From Alphaproteobacteria bacterium (GTDB taxonomy: Bacteria > Pseudomonadota > Alphaproteobacteria > UBA2966): a DNA stretch of 35,749 bases. The stretch is from positions 1 through 35,749 of the forward strand of contig JASLXG010000003.1 of the NCBI GenBank assembly GCA_030740435.1, read 5' to 3'. The notes beneath the pieces were generated by a model. It was not told the origin of the DNA. It made no database searches and saw only the letters and a list, made by a program, of their open reading frames with translations. Position numbers and translations under genes: made by a program. The first letter of the stretch is position 1; each line of letters starts with the position of its first letter. Below, piece by piece: positions 19,423 to 27,186 of this stretch.

Positions 19423-19500
19423 ATTCACAATGATTGCTGCTAGACAGCACAAAACCTGCTATCACGCGGCCGGGTTTTGGCGGCAGCGGAGGAGGTTCCC

Positions 19501-19956
19501 ATGGCCGAGGCGTGGACGGTTTATCTATCGGGCGAGATTCACAGCGATTGGCGCCGGCAGATTGCCGCCGGGGTGGCGGCCGCTGGGCTGCCGGTGGAGC
19601 TCACCGGGCCGGTCGACGACCACGAGAAGTCGGACGATTGCGGCGTGCGGATCCTGGGCGACGAGAGCGATGCCTTTTGGAAGGACAACAAAGGCGCCCG
19701 GCTCAATGCCATTCGCACCCGCACGCTGATCGAGCAGGCCGACGTTGTCGTCGTGCGTTTCGGCGATAAATACCGCCTGTGGAACGCCGCTTTCGATGCC
19801 GGCTATGCGGCGGCGCTGGGAACCCCCATCGTGACGCTGCACGACAGCGCCCTCGACCACGCGCTGAAGGAGGTCAACGCCGCTGCGCTGGCCACCACGT
19901 CGAGCCCCGACCAGGTGGTCAAGATCCTCGATTACGTGATCAACGGGGTGCTGTAA
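19501..19956 (+). CDS. ytoQ: YtoQ family protein
   Basis: 151 aa with the pattern of YtoQ: WTVYLSGEIHSDWR at the start, GPVDDHEKSDDCGVRILG, then KDNKGARLNAIRTRTLIEQADVVVVRFGDKYRLWNAAFDAGYAAALG. The last part resembles the nucleoside 2-deoxyribosyltransferase fold, but the reaction is not established. ATG 19501 is firmly supported by GGAGGAGG about 7 nt upstream; the frame is open 8 codons further but without merit. It follows the sulfotransferase-like gene by 78 bp and may be separately transcribed. Confidence 0.85.
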   Translation: MAEAWTVYLSGEIHSDWRRQIAAGVAAAGLPVELTGPVDDHEKSDDCGVRILGDESDAFWKDNKGARLNAIRTRTLIEQADVVVVRFGDKYRLWNAAFDAGYAAALGTPIVTLHDSALDHALKEVNAAALATTSSPDQVVKILDYVINGVL

Positions 19957-19996: not shown

Positions 19997-20287
19997 TCAG
20001 CGGGCCCGCGGGCGCTCCTTGATGCGGATTTTCGCGGGCTTGCGGGGCGCGCGCTTTTGCTGTTGCTGGCGGTCGAAGGCCATCATCACCTGACGCAGCT
20101 TGGGCATTTTTTCGGCCACGAAGGCCTTTCGTTCGGCGTCCATTTTGCGTGCGGTCTTGGCATCCAGCAGCCGGTCGACATCTTGGCGGTCGCTGAGCAT
20201 GGCCTCGATCTTGTCGACGTCGGATTCGCTCAGACCGGGATGCGCCTTGATCAGCCGCTGTCTCAGTTCGGGTTCGAAGGCTTCCAT
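19997..20287 (-). CDS. Small charged protein of unknown function
   Basis: 96 aa, highly charged and helical. The first half (EAFEPELRQRLIKAHPGLSE, then SDVDKIEAMLSDRQDVDRLL) has the look of a short helical bundle. The second half is very basic and ends with KRAPRKPAKIRIKERPRAR, which could bind nucleic acid or an acidic partner. No family recognised. ATG 20285-20287 has only a weak AGAG-type ribosome binding site. It begins 11 nt after the metallopeptidase stop on the same strand, so it is probably the last gene of that operon and may be translationally linked. Confidence 0.6.
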   Translation of the reverse strand: MEAFEPELRQRLIKAHPGLSESDVDKIEAMLSDRQDVDRLLDAKTARKMDAERKAFVAEKMPKLRQVMMAFDRQQQQKRAPRKPAKIRIKERPRAR

Positions 20288-20298
20288 CTTACTCTGCC

Positions 20299-21702
20299 TC
20301 AGCGGTCCAGTATGACCCGAATTCGGTCACGGTACCAAGCGGCGGTCAGCTTATCGAAGACCGACGACGAGGAATAGTTGTCCATCAGATTGGGCGCGGT
20401 GCTGACCTGCAATTCCGGATGATAGGTCACCCAGGTCGAGGGATAGCCGATGCCGTCCCGGTTGGGATCGGAATTATAGGTGGTGCCGTTATAGGTGGCG
20501 AAGGTGGCGGGAATGGCATCGCCGCTGGCCGCCCGCCATTTCTTGTTCAGCGCAAAGTTTGTGTAGGTGCGGTCGTTGTAGAGGTCCCGCACGCGGCCAT
20601 TGTCGTTCTCGGAGGTGCAATGGCCGAGCTCGTGGATCGCCGTCATCCTGCCGGTCGAGTTGTTGACCGAGATGGCCGTGCTGCCCGGCTGGTCACGGTA
20701 GGGCCAATGGTTGTAGTCCGTGCCGTCGTAGGTGAAGGGCTCCGCCAGGCCCCGGGAATAGTCGTCGGCGCAGCGCGACGCCGAGCCCCGCGTGTTGGTG
20801 GTCGAGCCGTGGAAGATGATGCAGAGGTCCGTCACCACGCCGTAATTGAGCAAGAAGCTGTTCACCCTGGATTTCGTGGCCCGCATGATCGTGCTGGTGG
20901 TGTCCTCCTCACAGAGCGTGTTGGCCTCCTCGGTCGCCAGAGAATCGTCGAAAATGGAGAGGATCCGCATTTCCGCGTCGCGTTCGCCGGGGCGCAGGAA
21001 ATCCTCGTCAACGGCGAAGATGTTGTTCATGGCGTAATCGACGATGGCGTGATAGCCGGATCGGTTGCCCAGGATGGGGTCGGCATAGATGTTGAGCGTG
21101 CCGTCCCTGTCGATGGCTGCGTTGGCGACGAAGCTGAGGGTGAAGGGATATTGCTTGGGCGCGCCGGCGTTGATGACCCGCTTGAGATAGCGGTCCTGGT
21201 CGGAGACATCGACGGGAAAGGCTTCGCTGGTGCCGGCCGAGGAGGTCACGCTCAGCATGTTCCAGCCGGTCGGGATCGAGGTCGGCAGCTCGCTCACCAG
21301 CAACAGGTGGGGCCGCACCAGATCCGGCGTCACCGTGACCGTGGCCGTGTCGCTGTCGAACACCAGTTCCGCGTCGTCCGGGAAATTCTCCCCCGTGACC
21401 GCGTAGAAATCCTCATGGACAGGCTGGTCGTTGGGGGCGATCTCGAAGGGGCCGACCTGAACCGAGGTGATCTCCGACGAGCCGCTGCGGGTAATTGCCG
21501 ACACCACGAAGCCATAGGCGCAGGACTTGATCAGCATCCCGAGAAGGGATCGTTTGTGGGTCAGTACGGCGAACGAATCGGCGGCGGCGAGGGAGATTCT
21601 GAGCAGCTCCGTGTTGTCGGGATCGTCGCCGATGTAGATCGAGGCGAAGGTGCTCGAAGCGTTGGATTTGATGCGCTGGACCTGACCGACATAGCTAGGC
21701 AT
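20299..21702 (-). CDS. HExxH metallopeptidase with novel N-terminal domain
   Basis: 467 aa, no signal peptide. Residues 1-~85 (MPSYVGQVQRIKSN..., IYIGDDPDNTELLRI) closely parallel the whole 85-aa protein encoded next door. Residues ~88-170 (FYAVTGENFPDD..., NMLSVTSSAGTSEAFPVDV) look like an IPT/TIG-type beta sandwich. The rest is a zincin: AIHELGHCTSENDNG puts the zinc-binding HELGH at residues 357-361, and NLMDNY near 438-443 could be a Met-turn. It does not continue as HExxHxxGxxH, so it is not a classical metzincin. The catalytic class and substrate are unknown. Base composition is lower in GC than neighbouring genes, which suggests transfer. It lies 29 nt downstream of the 85-aa gene. Confidence 0.72.
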   Translation of the reverse strand: MPSYVGQVQRIKSNASSTFASIYIGDDPDNTELLRISLAAADSFAVLTHKRSLLGMLIKSCAYGFVVSAITRSGSSEITSVQVGPFEIAPNDQPVHEDFYAVTGENFPDDAELVFDSDTATVTVTPDLVRPHLLLVSELPTSIPTGWNMLSVTSSAGTSEAFPVDVSDQDRYLKRVINAGAPKQYPFTLSFVANAAIDRDGTLNIYADPILGNRSGYHAIVDYAMNNIFAVDEDFLRPGERDAEMRILSIFDDSLATEEANTLCEEDTTSTIMRATKSRVNSFLLNYGVVTDLCIIFHGSTTNTRGSASRCADDYSRGLAEPFTYDGTDYNHWPYRDQPGSTAISVNNSTGRMTAIHELGHCTSENDNGRVRDLYNDRTYTNFALNKKWRAASGDAIPATFATYNGTTYNSDPNRDGIGYPSTWVTYHPELQVSTAPNLMDNYSSSSVFDKLTAAWYRDRIRVILDR

Positions 21703-21731
21703 GGAAGGTCTCCAACTCGCCGCCTGGGCCC

Positions 21732-21989
21732 TTAGGCCCGCTGCATCTCGACCAAGGTAATGCGGCTGCTGCTGTCATAGGACACCTCGACCTCGCGCCG
21801 TGTGGCCAAGGCCGTCGATAGCAGGTCGATCACCGAGGCCTTCATCGTCAATTCGCGCTCGCTGTCGGAGGAGCCGGCGATCACCATCAGCAACTGGGTG
21901 TCCGTCGGTGTCGGACCGACCGCCACTTTGGCCCGGACGTAGCTGGAACTGATGTCCAGGATCTGAACGTAGCCTGTCACGCTTGCCAT
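21732..21989 (-). CDS. 85-aa protein, paralogue of the peptidase N-terminal domain
   Basis: 85 aa. MASVTGYVQILDISSSYVRAKVAVGPTPTDTQLLMVI aligns by eye with the peptidase start: shared G-x-VQ, then S-x-x-x-A-x-V/I-x-VG-x-x-P-x-x-T-x-LL, and at the end SSRITLVEM against SSEITSVQV. So this small protein is the same domain in stand-alone form. It has no signal, no cysteines and no membrane segment. Stand-alone copies of a domain found on a protease could regulate it or form mixed oligomers; that is inference. It sits between the SCP2-like gene (27 nt) and the peptidase (29 nt). Confidence 0.7.
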   Translation of the reverse strand: MASVTGYVQILDISSSYVRAKVAVGPTPTDTQLLMVIAGSSDSERELTMKASVIDLLSTALATRREVEVSYDSSSRITLVEMQRA

Positions 21990-22016
21990 CTTGTTTCGTC
22001 CTGTCGGTTGCGCTGA

Positions 22017-22376
22017 TCAGCCAGCCGGTTTCATCAGTTTCAAATCTTCCAGCAGGCGTTCCAGATAACGGATGTCGCCGCGCACCTGCAGGCCGCCGGC
22101 AAAAAAAGCCTTGCGCGCATCGCGTTTGCCTTCCAGTACCATGCGCACGTTCTTGTCGCTGCCGACGATGCGGATGCGCGGTTTGCGGCGGCTGGGCCCC
22201 TTCCGGCACGTGACCCGCAGGCGGCGGTCCACGTTGATCTCGAAGGCACCGCCCTGGCGGCCCGACAATTCGAACTGGATGGCGCCAGGCGATCGCGCCT
22301 TGGTCCGGGCGAGCTTCTTCGCGGTGTTGACGACCGCCTCGCCCAGCGACAATTTTCTGACCGGTCTCCTAGCCAT
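22017..22376 (-). CDS. SCP2-like (sterol carrier) domain protein
   Basis: 119 aa. The C-terminal two thirds follows the SCP2 pattern: GAFEINVDRRLRVTCRKG, then IRIVGSDKNVRMVLEGKRDARKAFF, AGGLQVRGDIRYLERLLEDL. The GKxDxxxAFxxGxLxVxGD part is the best mark of this lipid-binding fold. The N-terminus is basic (RRPVRKLS, KKLARTKAR). No signal or anchor. It has an AGGAGAA ribosome binding site and is the first gene of the four-gene operon. Its job next to a peptidase is not obvious; binding of a lipid or hydrophobic peptide partner is possible. Confidence 0.72.
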   Translation of the reverse strand: MARRPVRKLSLGEAVVNTAKKLARTKARSPGAIQFELSGRQGGAFEINVDRRLRVTCRKGPSRRKPRIRIVGSDKNVRMVLEGKRDARKAFFAGGLQVRGDIRYLERLLEDLKLMKPAG

Positions 22377-22583
22377 GGCGGGTTCTCCTGTAGGCGATAT
22401 TTTCTAAAAACGATTGGAAATCATGTCTTTTCAAAGTTTATTTTTCGAGCCAAAAAATGATAACACAACTTAATACAGATTGATACCATAATTTATATTC
22501 CTGTCGGTAGCGCGATATTTAGAAAAATTCATGAAACCCATGACGCCATGGGCCATGACCATGGGTAATGACAAAACTGCGTC
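22377..22583. promoter_or_regulatory. AT-rich control region upstream of the SCP2/peptidase operon
   Basis: A 207-bp region with no gene, much richer in A/T than its surroundings. A direct repeat GCGATATTT (22394-22402 and 22512-22520) flanks the AT-rich core. Near the distal end an inverted repeat ACCCATG/CATGGGT, read on the minus strand, encloses a smaller ATGG-C-CCAT palindrome (about 22537-22567) and is followed by a T-rich stretch, so it could terminate the upstream minus-strand operon. I cannot place a -35/-10 pair with confidence. Confidence 0.4.
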
Positions 22584-23126
22584 CTACTCCGGCCTCTGTG
22601 CCGAGAAGCGCTTGAGCGCCTGCCGTTTGTCCTGGCGCTGGCGTTGGCGCAGGCTCAGGCGGTCGATCAAGGGGGCGGTCAGCATGATCAGGCCGATCAG
22701 GCCGAGGAGGCCGCCGCCCACGGCCATCAAGACACCCCAGACCAGCCAGCTGGGGAAGGGGCCCAGGATCTGCTGGCCGCCCCGGTAGATGTCCATGACC
22801 TCGCCCCGCGGCCGGCGCAACCGCAAGCGCAGCTCGTCGCCCCGTTCGAGGGTTTCGCGGGCCTCGGCGGCCGTGAACGGCAACCAGCCCAAGATGTCCT
22901 CTTTTTCGTAAACGAAGCTTTCGCCGGGATATTCCACCAGGCGAAATCTGACGTCGGCGTGGTGGACGGCGTAGCCCCTGTTATGGCTCTCGCCTTGGTG
23001 CGCCGTGAAGCTTTCCAGCCTGCCTTCCAGCGCGACGCTGGTGCGCAGCGGGCTCTGCCAGACAAGCCAACTGGCGGCGGCCAAGAAGGCGGCGGTAAAC
23101 AGCAGGCGCTGGGCGAGTTCCTTCAC
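22584..23126 (-). CDS. Two-pass membrane protein (DUF3592-like)
   Basis: 180 aa. Hydrophobic segments lie at about residues 5-25 (LAQRLLFTAAFLAAASWLVW) and 125-152 (WLVWGVLMAVGGGLLGLIGLIML), with a ~95-residue loop between that is outside the membrane and beta-rich (VRFRLVEYPGESFVYEKEDILG, RRPRGEVMDIYRGG). The layout fits DUF3592-type proteins. The basic tail (RQRQRQDKRQALKRF) would face the cytoplasm. Its GTG start overlaps the NfeD stop codon (GTGA), so it is co-translated with the NfeD/SPFH pair. Confidence 0.65.
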   Translation of the reverse strand: MKELAQRLLFTAAFLAAASWLVWQSPLRTSVALEGRLESFTAHQGESHNRGYAVHHADVRFRLVEYPGESFVYEKEDILGWLPFTAAEARETLERGDELRLRLRRPRGEVMDIYRGGQQILGPFPSWLVWGVLMAVGGGLLGLIGLIMLTAPLIDRLSLRQRQRQDKRQALKRFSAQRPE

Positions 23127-23569
23127 ACCGCTTCGACGACCAGCACCACACCGTCCGTGCCCGAAACCTTGACGCGGCTGCCGGCGGCCATGTCGGGGCC
23201 CTTGAGTTTCCAGATGACGCCGTCGAGCTTGATCTGGCCGCGGCCGTTGTGGATGGCCTCGTCGAGCACGAATTCACGGCCCGTGTGCTGTTCGGCGCGG
23301 CGGTTGAGGGTGGTTTCGTCCTCGGGCTTGTGTCGCGCCAGCAAATAACGCCGCCCCACCACCAGGCAGAGCACCGAGAGCACGGCAAAGAGCAAGAGCT
23401 GGTAGCGCCAGCCCAGGTCGTCGAAGATGAGCAGGATCAGGCCCACCACGGCGGCTGCCAGCCCGGGCCAGAGCAGCACCGTCGAGGGCATGATGAGCTC
23501 GAGCACGATGAGCGCCGTGCCAAAGGCCCACCAGTGCCAGAACTCGGCGGCTTCGAGCAGTTCGATCAT
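23123..23569 (-). CDS. NfeD family protein (SPFH partner)
   Basis: 148 aa. Two or three hydrophobic N-terminal segments ([33 protein letters not shown] is the typical opening, broken by [18 protein letters not shown]) are followed by a soluble OB-fold-like C-terminal part ([40 protein letters not shown]). This is the short NfeD form encoded next to SPFH proteins, which are thought to work together in membrane microdomains or membrane quality control. Its start overlaps the SPFH gene's stop by 4 nt (ATGA). Confidence 0.9.
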
Positions 23570-24498
23570 TTCTCTTTGCCGCCCAGCGCCTCACGGGCGA
23601 TCTCGCCGATGCCGCCGACGGCCGAGACCAGGCTGGAAAGCTCGAGCGGCATGAAGAAGGTCTTCTGGTTGTCGCCCTGGGCAAATTCCTTCAGCGCCTC
23701 GACGTATTTCTGTGCGATGAAGTAGTTGATGGCCTGGACCTCGCCGGCGGCGATGGCTTCCGAGACCATGCGGGTGGCATTGCCTTCGGCCTCGGCCTGG
23801 CGTTCGCGCGCTTCGGCATCGCGGAAGGCGGCCTCCTTGCGGCCCTCGGCGGCCAGCATGACGGCCTGCTTTTCACCCTCGGCCTTGAGGATCTCGCTTT
23901 GGCGCAAGCCCTCGGCCTCGAGGATGTTGGCCCGCTTCTCGCGCTCCGCCTTCATCTGCCGGGCCATGGCCTCGACGATGTCGCGCGGCGGGTCGATGTC
24001 CTTGATCTCGATGCGGGTGACCTTGATGCCCCAGGGCGCGGTGGCGTCGTCGACCACGTCGAGCAGTTGGGCGTTGATCTGGTCGCGTTTGGACAACAGC
24101 TCGTCCAAGTCCATCGAGCCCATCACCGTGCGCAAATTGGTCATGGTGAGATTGAGGATGGCGAGTTCCAGGTTGTTGACCTCGTAGGCCGCCTTGGGGG
24201 CGTCGATGACCTGGAAGAAGATGACGCCGTTGGCCCGCACCATGGCGTTGTCCTTGGTGATGACTTCTTGCTCCGGCACGTCGAGCACGCTCTCCATCAT
24301 GTTGAGCTTGCGCCCGATGCTGTCGATAATCGGCATGATGACGTGAAAGCCCGGGCGCAGGCTGCGGGTGAAGCGGCCGAAGCGCTCGACGGTGAACTCC
24401 CAGCCCTGGGGCACCACCTTGACGGCCAGCAGCAAGAGCACCAGCGCCAGCAGCACCATGACCAGGACGAAGATGGTAAAACCGGTAAATTCAGTCAT
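23566..24498 (-). CDS. SPFH/stomatin-like protein (QmcA/slipin type)
   Basis: 310 aa. A single N-terminal membrane segment ([21 protein letters not shown]) precedes the SPFH domain: [46 protein letters not shown] and [15 protein letters not shown] long Ala/Glu coiled-coil follows (about residues 190-240, [35 protein letters not shown]). It forms large ring-like oligomers in relatives and can associate with membrane proteases. The GGGAGTC ribosome binding site lies 8 nt before the ATG. First gene of the SPFH-NfeD-membrane protein operon; the 107 bp upstream (24499-24605) separates it from the SDR stop on the same strand and should hold a promoter. Confidence 0.92.
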
Positions 24499-25452: not shown

Positions 25453-27186
25453 GTGAACGACGATAGGAAAAACGCCAAACCCCAAGATTTGTCACCCGAA
25501 ACCCTGGCGGCCCAGGCCATGGGTGGCGTCGATGGCGAGACCCGGGCCCTGGTGCCGCCCGTACACCCCTCGACCACCTTCGAGCGCGACGCCGACGGCG
25601 GCTACAGCTCGGGCCGGGGCTACACGCGGCCGCACAACCCGGGCTACGACGAGCCCGAGGCCTTGCTGACGGCGCTCGAGGGCGGTGCCGAGAGCCTGCT
25701 CTTTGCCTCGGGCATGGCGGCGGCCACGGCCGTCTTCCAGGCGCTGCTGCCGGGCGATCATGTGGTGGCGCCCCGGGTCATGTACTGGGCGCTGCGCAAA
25801 TGGCTGGTCGATTTCGCGCTGCCCTGGGGGCTGGAGGTGGAATTCGTCGATACTTCCGACGGTGCCGCGTTGGAAGTCGCCATGCGGCCGGGACGGACCC
25901 GGCTGGTGTGGCTCGAGACCCCGGCCAACCCGACCTGGGCCATCACCGACATCGCCCAGGCGGCCGAGATCGCGCACGCTGCCGGGGCCCGCCTGGCGGT
26001 CGACAGCACGGTGCCGACGCCGGTGCTGACGCGACCCATCGAATGGGGCGCCGACCTGGTGGTGCACAGTGCCAGCAAGGGGCTGAACGGCCATTCTGAC
26101 GTGCTGGCGGGCGCCATCGTGGGGGCCCGCCAGGATGCCTTCTGGCAGCGCCTGCGGGCCTGGCGGCGCGACGGCGGGGCCGTGCTTGGGCCCTTCGAGG
26201 CCTGGCTTTTGCTGCGCGGCATGCGCACGCTTTTCCCCAGGGTGCGGCAGTGCTCCGCCAGTGCGCTATTCGTGGCCCGCCATTTCAGCGGCCACCCGGC
26301 GCTCAGTGACGTGCTCTACCCCGGACTTCCCGACCATCCCGGCCACGCCGTGGCGGCGCGCCAGATGCAGGGCGGTTTCGGCTCCATGCTGTCGCTGCGC
26401 TTGGCCGGCGGCGAGGCGGCGGCCATGGAGCTGGCGGCCCGGGTCCAGGTCTTCACCCGCGCCACCTCGCTGGGCGGCGTCGAAAGCCTGATCGAGCACC
26501 GGGCCAGCATCGAAGGGCCGGCGACGCCGGTGCCGGCGGATCTTTTGCGCCTCTCCATCGGTCTCGAGGATCCGGGGGATCTGATTGCCGATTTGGAACA
26601 AGCGCTGGCGGGGCTGCCCGAGGTCGGCGAAAGCCGTACGGCGGCGGTGTCAACGCCGACGCCGGCGCCCAGCGACCCCGTCGAGAAGGTGTTGGAAATC
26701 CACCTCAGGCCGCAAGTGCGCGAGCGCGGCGGCGACTTGGTGGTGCGGAGCTTCCGGGACGGCGTGCTGGAGCTTGGCATCAAGGGCTCGCCCGGCGCCG
26801 CCATGGCCATGGCGGAAACCATCCGCAACACGCTCTGCCACTACCTGCCCGAGGTGGCCGAGGTGCGCCTGGCGCCGGCCGGTCCGGCCGGCCCGGGCGG
26901 CAGCGGCGACGCGGCGGCGCGGCTGCAAAGCCTGCTCGACGACGAGATCAATCCCGCCGTGGCCGCCCACGGCGGCCGTATCGTGCTGGCCGAGCTGGCC
27001 GACGGCGTCGCCCGGCTGCGCCTCGAAGGCGGCTGCCAGGGCTGTGCCATGGCCGAGATGACGCTGCGCCAGGGCGTCGAGCCGATGCTGCGGGCGGCCC
27101 TGCCGGAGATCGTCGCGGTGGTCGACATGAGCGACCACGCCGCCGGCAAGGCGCCTTATTTCAAGACCCGCAAGGGTGGCGCCTGA
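25453..27186 (+). CDS. Cys/Met-metabolism PLP enzyme fused to two NifU-like domains
   Basis: 577 aa. Residues ~10-390 are a gamma-family PLP enzyme (cystathionine gamma-synthase/lyase-like): STTFERDADGGYSSGRGYTRPHNP, LFASGMAAATAVFQALLPGDHVV, WLETPANPTW and HSASKGLNGHSDVLAG with the PLP Lys209. After a Pro/Thr linker come two NifU C-terminal domains. The first (~409-473, VEKVLEIHLRPQVRERGGDL) has lost its cysteines: GSPGAA takes the place of GSCxxC. The second (~490-565) keeps EGGCQGCAMAEMTL (Cys528, Cys531), as in Nfu Fe-S carriers. Joining a sulfur-amino-acid lyase to an Fe-S carrier suggests direct sulfur or cluster delivery, which is inference. GTG 25453 has a GGGGAGAG site. No stop or frame problem at the junctions. 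Confidence 0.85.
   Translation: MNDDRKNAKPQDLSPETLAAQAMGGVDGETRALVPPVHPSTTFERDADGGYSSGRGYTRPHNPGYDEPEALLTALEGGAESLLFASGMAAATAVFQALLPGDHVVAPRVMYWALRKWLVDFALPWGLEVEFVDTSDGAALEVAMRPGRTRLVWLETPANPTWAITDIAQAAEIAHAAGARLAVDSTVPTPVLTRPIEWGADLVVHSASKGLNGHSDVLAGAIVGARQDAFWQRLRAWRRDGGAVLGPFEAWLLLRGMRTLFPRVRQCSASALFVARHFSGHPALSDVLYPGLPDHPGHAVAARQMQGGFGSMLSLRLAGGEAAAMELAARVQVFTRATSLGGVESLIEHRASIEGPATPVPADLLRLSIGLEDPGDLIADLEQALAGLPEVGESRTAAVSTPTPAPSDPVEKVLEIHLRPQVRERGGDLVVRSFRDGVLELGIKGSPGAAMAMAETIRNTLCHYLPEVAEVRLAPAGPAGPGGSGDAAARLQSLLDDEINPAVAAHGGRIVLAELADGVARLRLEGGCQGCAMAEMTLRQGVEPMLRAALPEIVAVVDMSDHAAGKAPYFKTRKGGA

What the first reader, a model, noticed from the sequence alone, without database searches (positions are those of the whole stretch)
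19997..22376. Four-gene operon with a metallopeptidase whose N-terminal domain also exists as a separate neighbouring gene
The 85-aa protein (21732-21989) and residues 1-85 of the HELGH peptidase (20299-21702) appear homologous: both start M-x-S-x-x-G-x-VQ, have VG/IG-x-x-P-x-x-T-x-LL and end SS-x-IT-x-V. The peptidase then has a beta-sandwich (IPT/TIG-like) and a zincin that does not fit the metzincin pattern. An SCP2-like gene leads the operon and a basic 96-aa gene ends it, with gaps of 27, 29 and 11 nt. GC is lower than the surroundings. I know of no described system with this combination; candidates are a contact or defence protease with a domain-matched regulator, or a spore/surface-related assembly.
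Basis: partly seen in the sequence, partly recalled or inferred. Interest (0 to 1): 0.7.

Follow-up and report, generated by a model that had tools for sequence, protein, structure and literature searches.

The report
Peptidase operon with matching scaffold domain
A rare, uncharacterised four-gene bacterial operon encodes a zinc protease whose front domain is also made as a free-standing protein, suggesting that the free copies form a scaffold the protease plugs into; the same protease family, found across several bacterial phyla, always travels with one small partner protein whose role is unknown.

Summary
The 85-aa protein (d85) and the peptidase N-terminus are homologous (BLASTP E 9e-7), and the operon SCP2-like/d85/peptidase/96-aa is conserved in the same order with short gaps in two other genomes (Rhizobium sp. 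BK313, a Rhodospirillaceae MAG) at only about 40% peptidase identity. AlphaFold plus structure search resolves the peptidase as OB-fold domain (1-84), IPT/TIG-like domain (85-170) and a metzincin with the fold of M64/igalysin peptidases (172-467; Z 14 to BF3526). It has a longer zinc-ligand loop, lacks the igalysin structural-zinc residues and has no signal peptide, so it is M64-like but not M64. d85 has an OB fold closest to ring-forming AB5 B-subunits; cytoplasmic CipA also appears. The obligate pair is peptidase plus the 96-aa gene, which follows every intact family member found (11 of 11, several phyla). d85 and SCP2 occur only where the peptidase carries the OB domain (3 of 3, against 0 of 8). 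Best reading: an intracellular peptidase docked on a d85 scaffold, with the 96-aa protein as dedicated partner, probably inhibitor or chaperone. Docking and activity are inferred. No evidence for defence, spore or surface roles.

The parts
22017..22376 (-). SCP2-like protein, 119 aa, basic N-terminus; first gene of the operon
   Evidence: Pfam SCP2 E 1.1e-7; orthologues in L062 and L063, alignment A8
21732..21989 (-). d85, free-standing OB-fold protein, 85 aa
   Evidence: AlphaFold pLDDT 88, b-b-b-a-b-b; nearest solved folds are AB5 toxin B-subunits, also CipA; homologous to the peptidase N-domain
20299..21702 (-). 467-aa metallopeptidase: OB domain + IPT/TIG-like domain + M64/igalysin-like metzincin domain
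   Evidence: AlphaFold model pLDDT 74; VIA-align Z 14.2 to BF3526 over residues 172-467, Z about 11 for residues 85-170
21451..21702 (-). N-terminal OB domain of the peptidase (residues 1-84), paralogue of d85
   Evidence: strands and helix E3-14 E18-24 E34-38 H44-63 E66-71 E78-83 in the model
21193..21450 (-). IPT/TIG-like beta-sandwich, residues 85-170
   Evidence: Z 11.2 to the matching domain of a cyclodextrin glycosyltransferase, Z 9-10 to Rel-homology C-terminal domains
20302..21189 (-). Catalytic domain, residues 172-467; H357-E358-x-x-H361, invariant N368, G369, D373-L-Y375, Met-turn-like M440-D441
   Evidence: alignments A5 and A9; structure match
19997..20287 (-). 96-aa protein (b96), probably mainly helical by sequence, basic C-terminus; obligate partner gene of the peptidase
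   Evidence: homologue directly downstream of all 11 intact peptidases found, and of 3 of 5 decayed ones (alignment A11)
22377..22583 (.). AT-rich (38% GC) intergenic stretch upstream of the operon, presumed promoter/regulatory region
   Evidence: the only promoter-like match inside it is on the + strand, so the operon promoter itself is inferred

Best explanation
This is an intact operon for an intracellular, M64/igalysin-like zinc peptidase that works as part of a complex. Shown: the peptidase is built as OB domain, IPT/TIG-like domain and metzincin-fold catalytic domain; the free d85 protein is a homologue of its OB domain; the operon order is conserved in three divergent genomes; the 96-aa gene follows every intact peptidase of the family that was found. 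Inferred: free d85 subunits oligomerise through their OB edge strands, as AB5 B-subunits and CipA do, and the peptidase inserts its own OB domain as one protomer (several d85 plus one peptidase), so that d85 docks or concentrates the enzyme; the IPT/TIG domain is a spacer or binding arm; the SCP2-like protein brings a hydrophobic ligand or membrane contact; the 96-aa protein is the dedicated inhibitor or chaperone that holds the catalytic domain until it is needed.
For: Homology of d85 and N-domain; free d85 and SCP2 present exactly where the peptidase has the OB domain, 3 of 3 against 0 of 8 intact members; four-gene order kept with gaps 27/29/11, 20/10/9 and 3/12/9 nt; d85 fold closest to ring-forming OB proteins (pertussis toxin chain 1prt_F Z 11.7, cholera toxin B Z 10.5), with CipA also listed, an OB-fold tetramer built by b1-b5 edge pairing and a central helix bundle (PMC9530169); M64 fold Z 14; HExxH, D-x-Y and a Met-turn-like Met invariant; no signal peptide, unlike true M64 proteins; b96 directly downstream in every intact member. 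A second, unrelated case of a fused domain with a free copy nearby: GH5-fused peptidases in L064/L065, with a GH5-like protein next to b96; in L065 that copy lacks the NEP and TEW catalytic motifs.
Against: Similar fold does not prove ring formation; sequence identity to AB5 B-subunits is 5-18%, and a profile search of PDB sequences found nothing. No complex prediction was possible. The catalytic loop 367-393 is modelled at low confidence, so the third zinc ligand is unproved. The family is very rare (1 of 385 class genomes, 1 of 247 genomes of L015's phylum, 1 of 148 in the genus of Rhizobium BK313), so the d85 co-occurrence rests on three operons. b96 as inhibitor or chaperone has only genomic support.
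Confidence: 0.42

Rival explanations
1. Peptide-processing pair: the 96-aa protein is the substrate. The peptidase recognises its conserved N-terminal half and cleaves off the variable C-terminal part; d85 and SCP2 are later additions for recruitment.
For: b96 is conserved in its first 40 residues (consensus MEPLKPExR...E.E.LLS.RF..DP) and variable in length and C-terminus; it follows every intact peptidase. A published precedent couples a zincin-like metallopeptidase with a small, rapidly diverging substrate protein (FxSxx-COOH, PMC7159879).
Against: No conserved C-terminal signature or cleavage site is visible; the same N-terminal conservation fits an inhibitor or chaperone.
Confidence: 0.2
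2. Conflict or defence system working like effector-associated-domain (EAD) systems: the small domain couples the peptidase effector to a sensor (SCP2-like or d85), and the peptidase is unleashed on infection or stress.
For: EAD rule: one domain copy fused to one component, another encoded by an adjacent gene of the same operon, the domain small and non-enzymatic (PMC7159879). Patchy, rare, partly plasmid-borne distribution.
Against: No NTPase or other core component of EAD systems among the four genes; PADLOC gives only DpdD at E 0.003 for b96; no defence neighbours recognised in the loci read.
Confidence: 0.15
3. Exported effector protease with b96 as immunity protein, released by a non-classical secretion route.
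For: Toxin-immunity-like gene pair; resemblance of d85 to receptor-binding B-subunits; GH5 and IPT/TIG modules are common outside the cell.
Against: No signal peptide on any of the four proteins; no secretion genes or delivery markers recognised nearby.
Confidence: 0.1
4. d85 is simply a leftover duplicate with no physical link to the peptidase.
For: Gene duplication next to the parent gene is common (general knowledge).
Against: Both copies are kept in all three genomes despite about 40% peptidase identity; the poorly resolved tree prefers d85s together and N-domains together (55/61 support), i.e. one old duplication.
Confidence: 0.1

Closest known systems
M64 / igalysin peptidases (BF3526 4df9 and 9qdi, BACOVA_00663 3p1v, T. 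ramosa IgAse/ThomasA)
   Same: Fold over residues 172-467 (Z 14.1-14.2, rmsd 3.5-3.7 over 202-211 residues); HExxH; an invariant Asp followed two residues later by Tyr; Met-turn-like methionine; C-terminal helix
   Different: Motif HExxH-x7-G-x3-D-x-Y instead of HExxHxxxGxxD-x-Y; no structural-zinc Glu/Cys residues; no signal peptide; no Pfam hit; profile-profile match only local; identity 11-12%
AB5 toxin B-subunits (fold only)
   Same: OB-fold topology, size and strand order of d85 (Z up to 11.7)
   Different: 5-18% identity, no signal peptide, oligomerisation untested, peptidase OB domain is covalently fused; no evidence of a receptor-binding role
CipA crystalline inclusion protein of Photorhabdus (7xhs)
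   Same: Small OB-fold protein; in the Foldseek list; its authors note similarity to the LT-IIB B-subunit (PMC9530169)
   Different: Sequence relation not shown; crystal formation by d85 unknown
Effector-associated domains (EADs) of NTP-dependent conflict systems (PMC7159879)
   Same: Small non-enzymatic domain present once fused to an enzyme and again in an adjacent gene
   Different: Here the second copy is free-standing, the domain is an OB fold, and no NTPase core is present

Membership tests
M64 / igalysin | Metzincin fold of the igalysin type | tested here: met
   the three top structural matches are all M64, Z 14.1-14.2
M64 / igalysin | Zinc motif HExxHxxxGxxD (PMC12237041, PMC12402451) | tested here: not met
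   HExxH invariant, but the invariant Gly is at second His +8 and the next invariant Asp at +12 (D373); position +7 is invariant Asn368
M64 / igalysin | Tyrosine two residues after the Asp ligand | tested here: inconclusive
   D373-L374-Y375 invariant; met only if D373 is the ligand, which is not proved
M64 / igalysin | Met-turn methionine | tested here: inconclusive
   M440 in P-x-x-M-D-(N/D)-Y is invariant, but residues 436-444 are modelled under pLDDT 50
M64 / igalysin | Structural zinc site (Glu after the Asp ligand, three Cys), described for T. ramosa IgAse | tested here: not met
   Leu374 replaces Glu; the three Cys have no invariant counterpart in the alignment
M64 / igalysin | Match to Pfam PF09471 | tested here: not met
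   no hit
Metzincin clan | HExxH helix, third ligand, Met-turn, five-stranded sheet with backing helix | tested here: inconclusive
   Fold match and HExxH met; third ligand and Met-turn lie in low-confidence loops
SCP2 domain | Pfam PF02036 above cut-off | tested here: met
   32.5 bits against cut-off 21.3; L062 orthologue 22.4 bits
AB5 toxin B-subunit | OB fold with B-subunit topology | tested here: met
AB5 toxin B-subunit | Secretion signal | tested here: not met
   no hydrophobic N-terminal segment on d85
AB5 toxin B-subunit | Pentameric ring with an A-subunit | not testable with these tools
   no complex prediction available
EAD conflict system | One domain copy fused, another in an adjacent gene | tested here: met
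EAD conflict system | NTPase or ternary-system core component | tested here: not met
   none among the four genes, none conserved next to them in L062, L063 and the window
Known anti-phage defence protein (PADLOC) | Confident model match | tested here: not met
   only DpdD E 0.003 for b96

The most novel reading that the evidence does not exclude
A cytoplasmic holoenzyme of a kind not described: a hetero-oligomeric OB-fold ring, similar in architecture to B-subunit rings, in which several free d85 subunits and the peptidase's own fused OB domain assemble, giving a scaffolded metzincin controlled by a dedicated 96-aa partner and linked to a lipid or hydrophobic ligand through an SCP2-like protein.
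Probability: 0.25. Interest if true: 0.75.

Novelty: new variant of a known kind. Interest (0 to 1): 0.5.

Why it matters
It defines an uncurated peptidase family (no Pfam or NCBIfam model) distantly joined by fold to the igalysins, whose studied members are secreted and include gut bacterial IgA proteases, and suggests an intracellular branch with an obligate small partner. If docking is right, it would be a natural case of a B-subunit-like OB oligomer used inside the cell as an enzyme scaffold. Both main claims, the peptidase-b96 pair and the d85 scaffold, are testable with small proteins.

Tried and rejected
Single-protein searches of viral contigs and genome contigs with the window peptidase found no relatives, nor did alignment-based scans of viral contigs; a degenerate DNA pattern for GYPxxWxxYHxE did find the family in genomes, while its two viral matches were chance. 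Relatives and class samples gave no further member, likewise L015's phylum (45), the genus of L035 (118) and the order of L021 (119). Weak d85 hits in a Gordonia plasmid and in G214/G114 were judged chance; two weak b96 hits were not pursued. Phage origin: no d85 relatives in phages, no convincing ones in plasmids, PHROG hits weak. Foldseek alone listed mostly Ig-like domains for the full model because the middle domain dominates; VIA-align resolved it. HHalign of the core against four M64 proteins gave only a 40-column match, so M64 kinship rests on structure. A tree of the six OB domains is too short to be resolved.

Full report
CHECK OF THE OBSERVATION. The four ORFs lie as stated on the minus strand: SCP2-like 22376-22017 (119 aa), d85 21989-21732 (85 aa), peptidase 21702-20299 (467 aa), b96 20287-19997 (96 aa), gaps 27, 29 and 11 nt. 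d85 and the peptidase N-terminus are homologous: BLASTP E 9e-7, local alignment score 89 against a maximum of 47 in 1000 shuffles. GC is modestly lower than in the neighbours, and the 207 nt upstream are only 38% GC.

FAMILY AND DISTRIBUTION. None of the four proteins except the SCP2-like one has a Pfam match, and none an NCBIfam match. tblastn found two rhizobial plasmid copies of the catalytic domain. From their alignment with the window protein the motif GYPxxWxxYHxE was back-translated and scanned over 84,980 genomes: 31 stretches, of which 13 are true relatives by tblastn, among them Alphaproteobacteria, Acidobacteria, Nostoc, Planctomycetota and a Syntrophobacterales MAG. With the window and the two plasmids this makes 16 loci, 11 with an intact peptidase frame. 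This is a lower bound, since only exact pattern matches were found. Sampled searches show how rare it is: 1 of 385 genomes of the window's class, 1 of 247 of L015's phylum, 1 of 148 in the genus of Rhizobium BK313, 1 of 23 in the order of the Rhodospirillaceae MAG; each time the only hit was the starting genome itself.

GENE PARTNERS. The complete four-gene operon recurs in Rhizobium sp. BK313 (L035/L063) and a Rhodospirillaceae MAG (L021/L062), with peptidase identity about 40% and gaps 3/12/9 and 20/10/9 nt. An HMM of b96 over six-frame translations finds a b96 homologue directly downstream of the peptidase in all 11 intact loci, counting the window, and in 3 of 5 decayed ones; seven of these loci were not in the training alignment. 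Free d85 and SCP2 occur only in the three genomes whose peptidase has the OB domain. Six other members are short and start at or close to the catalytic domain. Two members (L064, L065) carry instead a GH5 glycoside-hydrolase domain before the IPT-like and catalytic domains, and next to b96 lies a second GH5-like ORF; in L065 it lacks the NEP and TEW motifs. So a free copy of the fused domain close by occurs with two unrelated domains.

STRUCTURE. The peptidase model (10-row alignment, pLDDT 74, pTM 0.71) has three parts. Residues 3-83 have OB topology. Residues 85-170 match IPT/TIG-like domains (Z about 11). Residues 172-467 match the M64 peptidases BF3526 and BACOVA_00663 as the three best hits (Z 14.1-14.2, rmsd 3.5-3.7 over 202-211 residues). 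The published igalysin motif is HExxHxxxGxxD with a Tyr two residues later and a Met-turn (PMC12237041, PMC12402451). Here HExxH (357-361), N368, G369, D373-L-Y375 and M440 are invariant, giving HExxH-x7-G-x3-D-x-Y. The simplest reading is that D373 is the third ligand after a five-residue-longer loop; N368, at the spacing of the igalysin Asp, is the alternative. The loop is modelled under pLDDT 50, so this is open. The structural zinc site is missing and there is no signal peptide, unlike the four true M64 proteins compared. I therefore call it M64-like, not M64.

THE SHARED DOMAIN. The model of d85 itself is good (pLDDT 88). Nearest solved folds are almost all AB5 toxin B-subunits, with CipA also listed. 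CipA is an OB protein of Photorhabdus inclusions that tetramerises by b1-b5 edge pairing around a central helix bundle, and its authors noted the likeness to LT-IIB (PMC9530169). The likeness is of fold only: identity is 5-18% and a sequence-profile search finds no relation.

MECHANISM. Shown: anatomy, homology, conserved order, b96 partner in every intact member, M64-like fold. Inferred: d85 oligomerises and takes up the peptidase through its fused OB domain; b96 is inhibitor or chaperone; the SCP2-like protein supplies a hydrophobic ligand or membrane contact. The main rival is that b96 is the substrate, since its N-terminal half is conserved and the rest varies. A conflict-system role is compatible with the EAD coupling rule (PMC7159879), but no NTPase core or defence hit supports it.

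VERDICT. The finding is real and not chance. The new points are the M64-like assignment, the OB fold of the shared domain, the tie between free d85 and fused domain, and the b96 partner in every intact member. Interest 0.5.

Noticed in passing
L064:9592-11907 and L065:9204-11912 with neighbours: Relatives in which a GH5 cellulase-like domain replaces the OB domain in front of the IPT-like and peptidase domains; the next gene downstream of b96 is a GH5-like protein with a long Lys/Arg/Glu-rich N-terminal tail, lacking the catalytic motifs in L065.
   Followed up: partly
L068:7339-9027: Nostoc linckia gene upstream of the peptidase encodes a 563-aa beta-rich protein with a Ser/Thr-rich alternating stretch (weak Porin_4 match, E 3e-4, below cut-off).
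   Followed up: no
L005, L012, L014, L022, L029: Several copies of the peptidase are broken by stops or frameshifts, pointing to frequent loss of the module.
   Followed up: partly
window 22377-22583: 207-nt intergenic stretch of 38% GC in a 65% GC region directly upstream of the operon; the upstream stretches in L062 and L063 are less extreme (62% and 50%).
   Followed up: partly
window 25453-27186: 577-aa fusion of a Cys/Met-metabolism PLP enzyme with two NifU-like domains (Pfam E 1e-99 and 3.7e-30), a combination that looks unusual to me.
   Followed up: partly
window 19477-19956: YtoQ-type nucleoside 2-deoxyribosyltransferase homologue (PF11071, E 8.5e-62) convergent with the operon; no sign that it belongs to it.
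   Followed up: no
window 23123-24498: NfeD/SPFH (Band 7) gene pair upstream of the operon on the same strand; an ordinary chromosomal pair.
   Followed up: no
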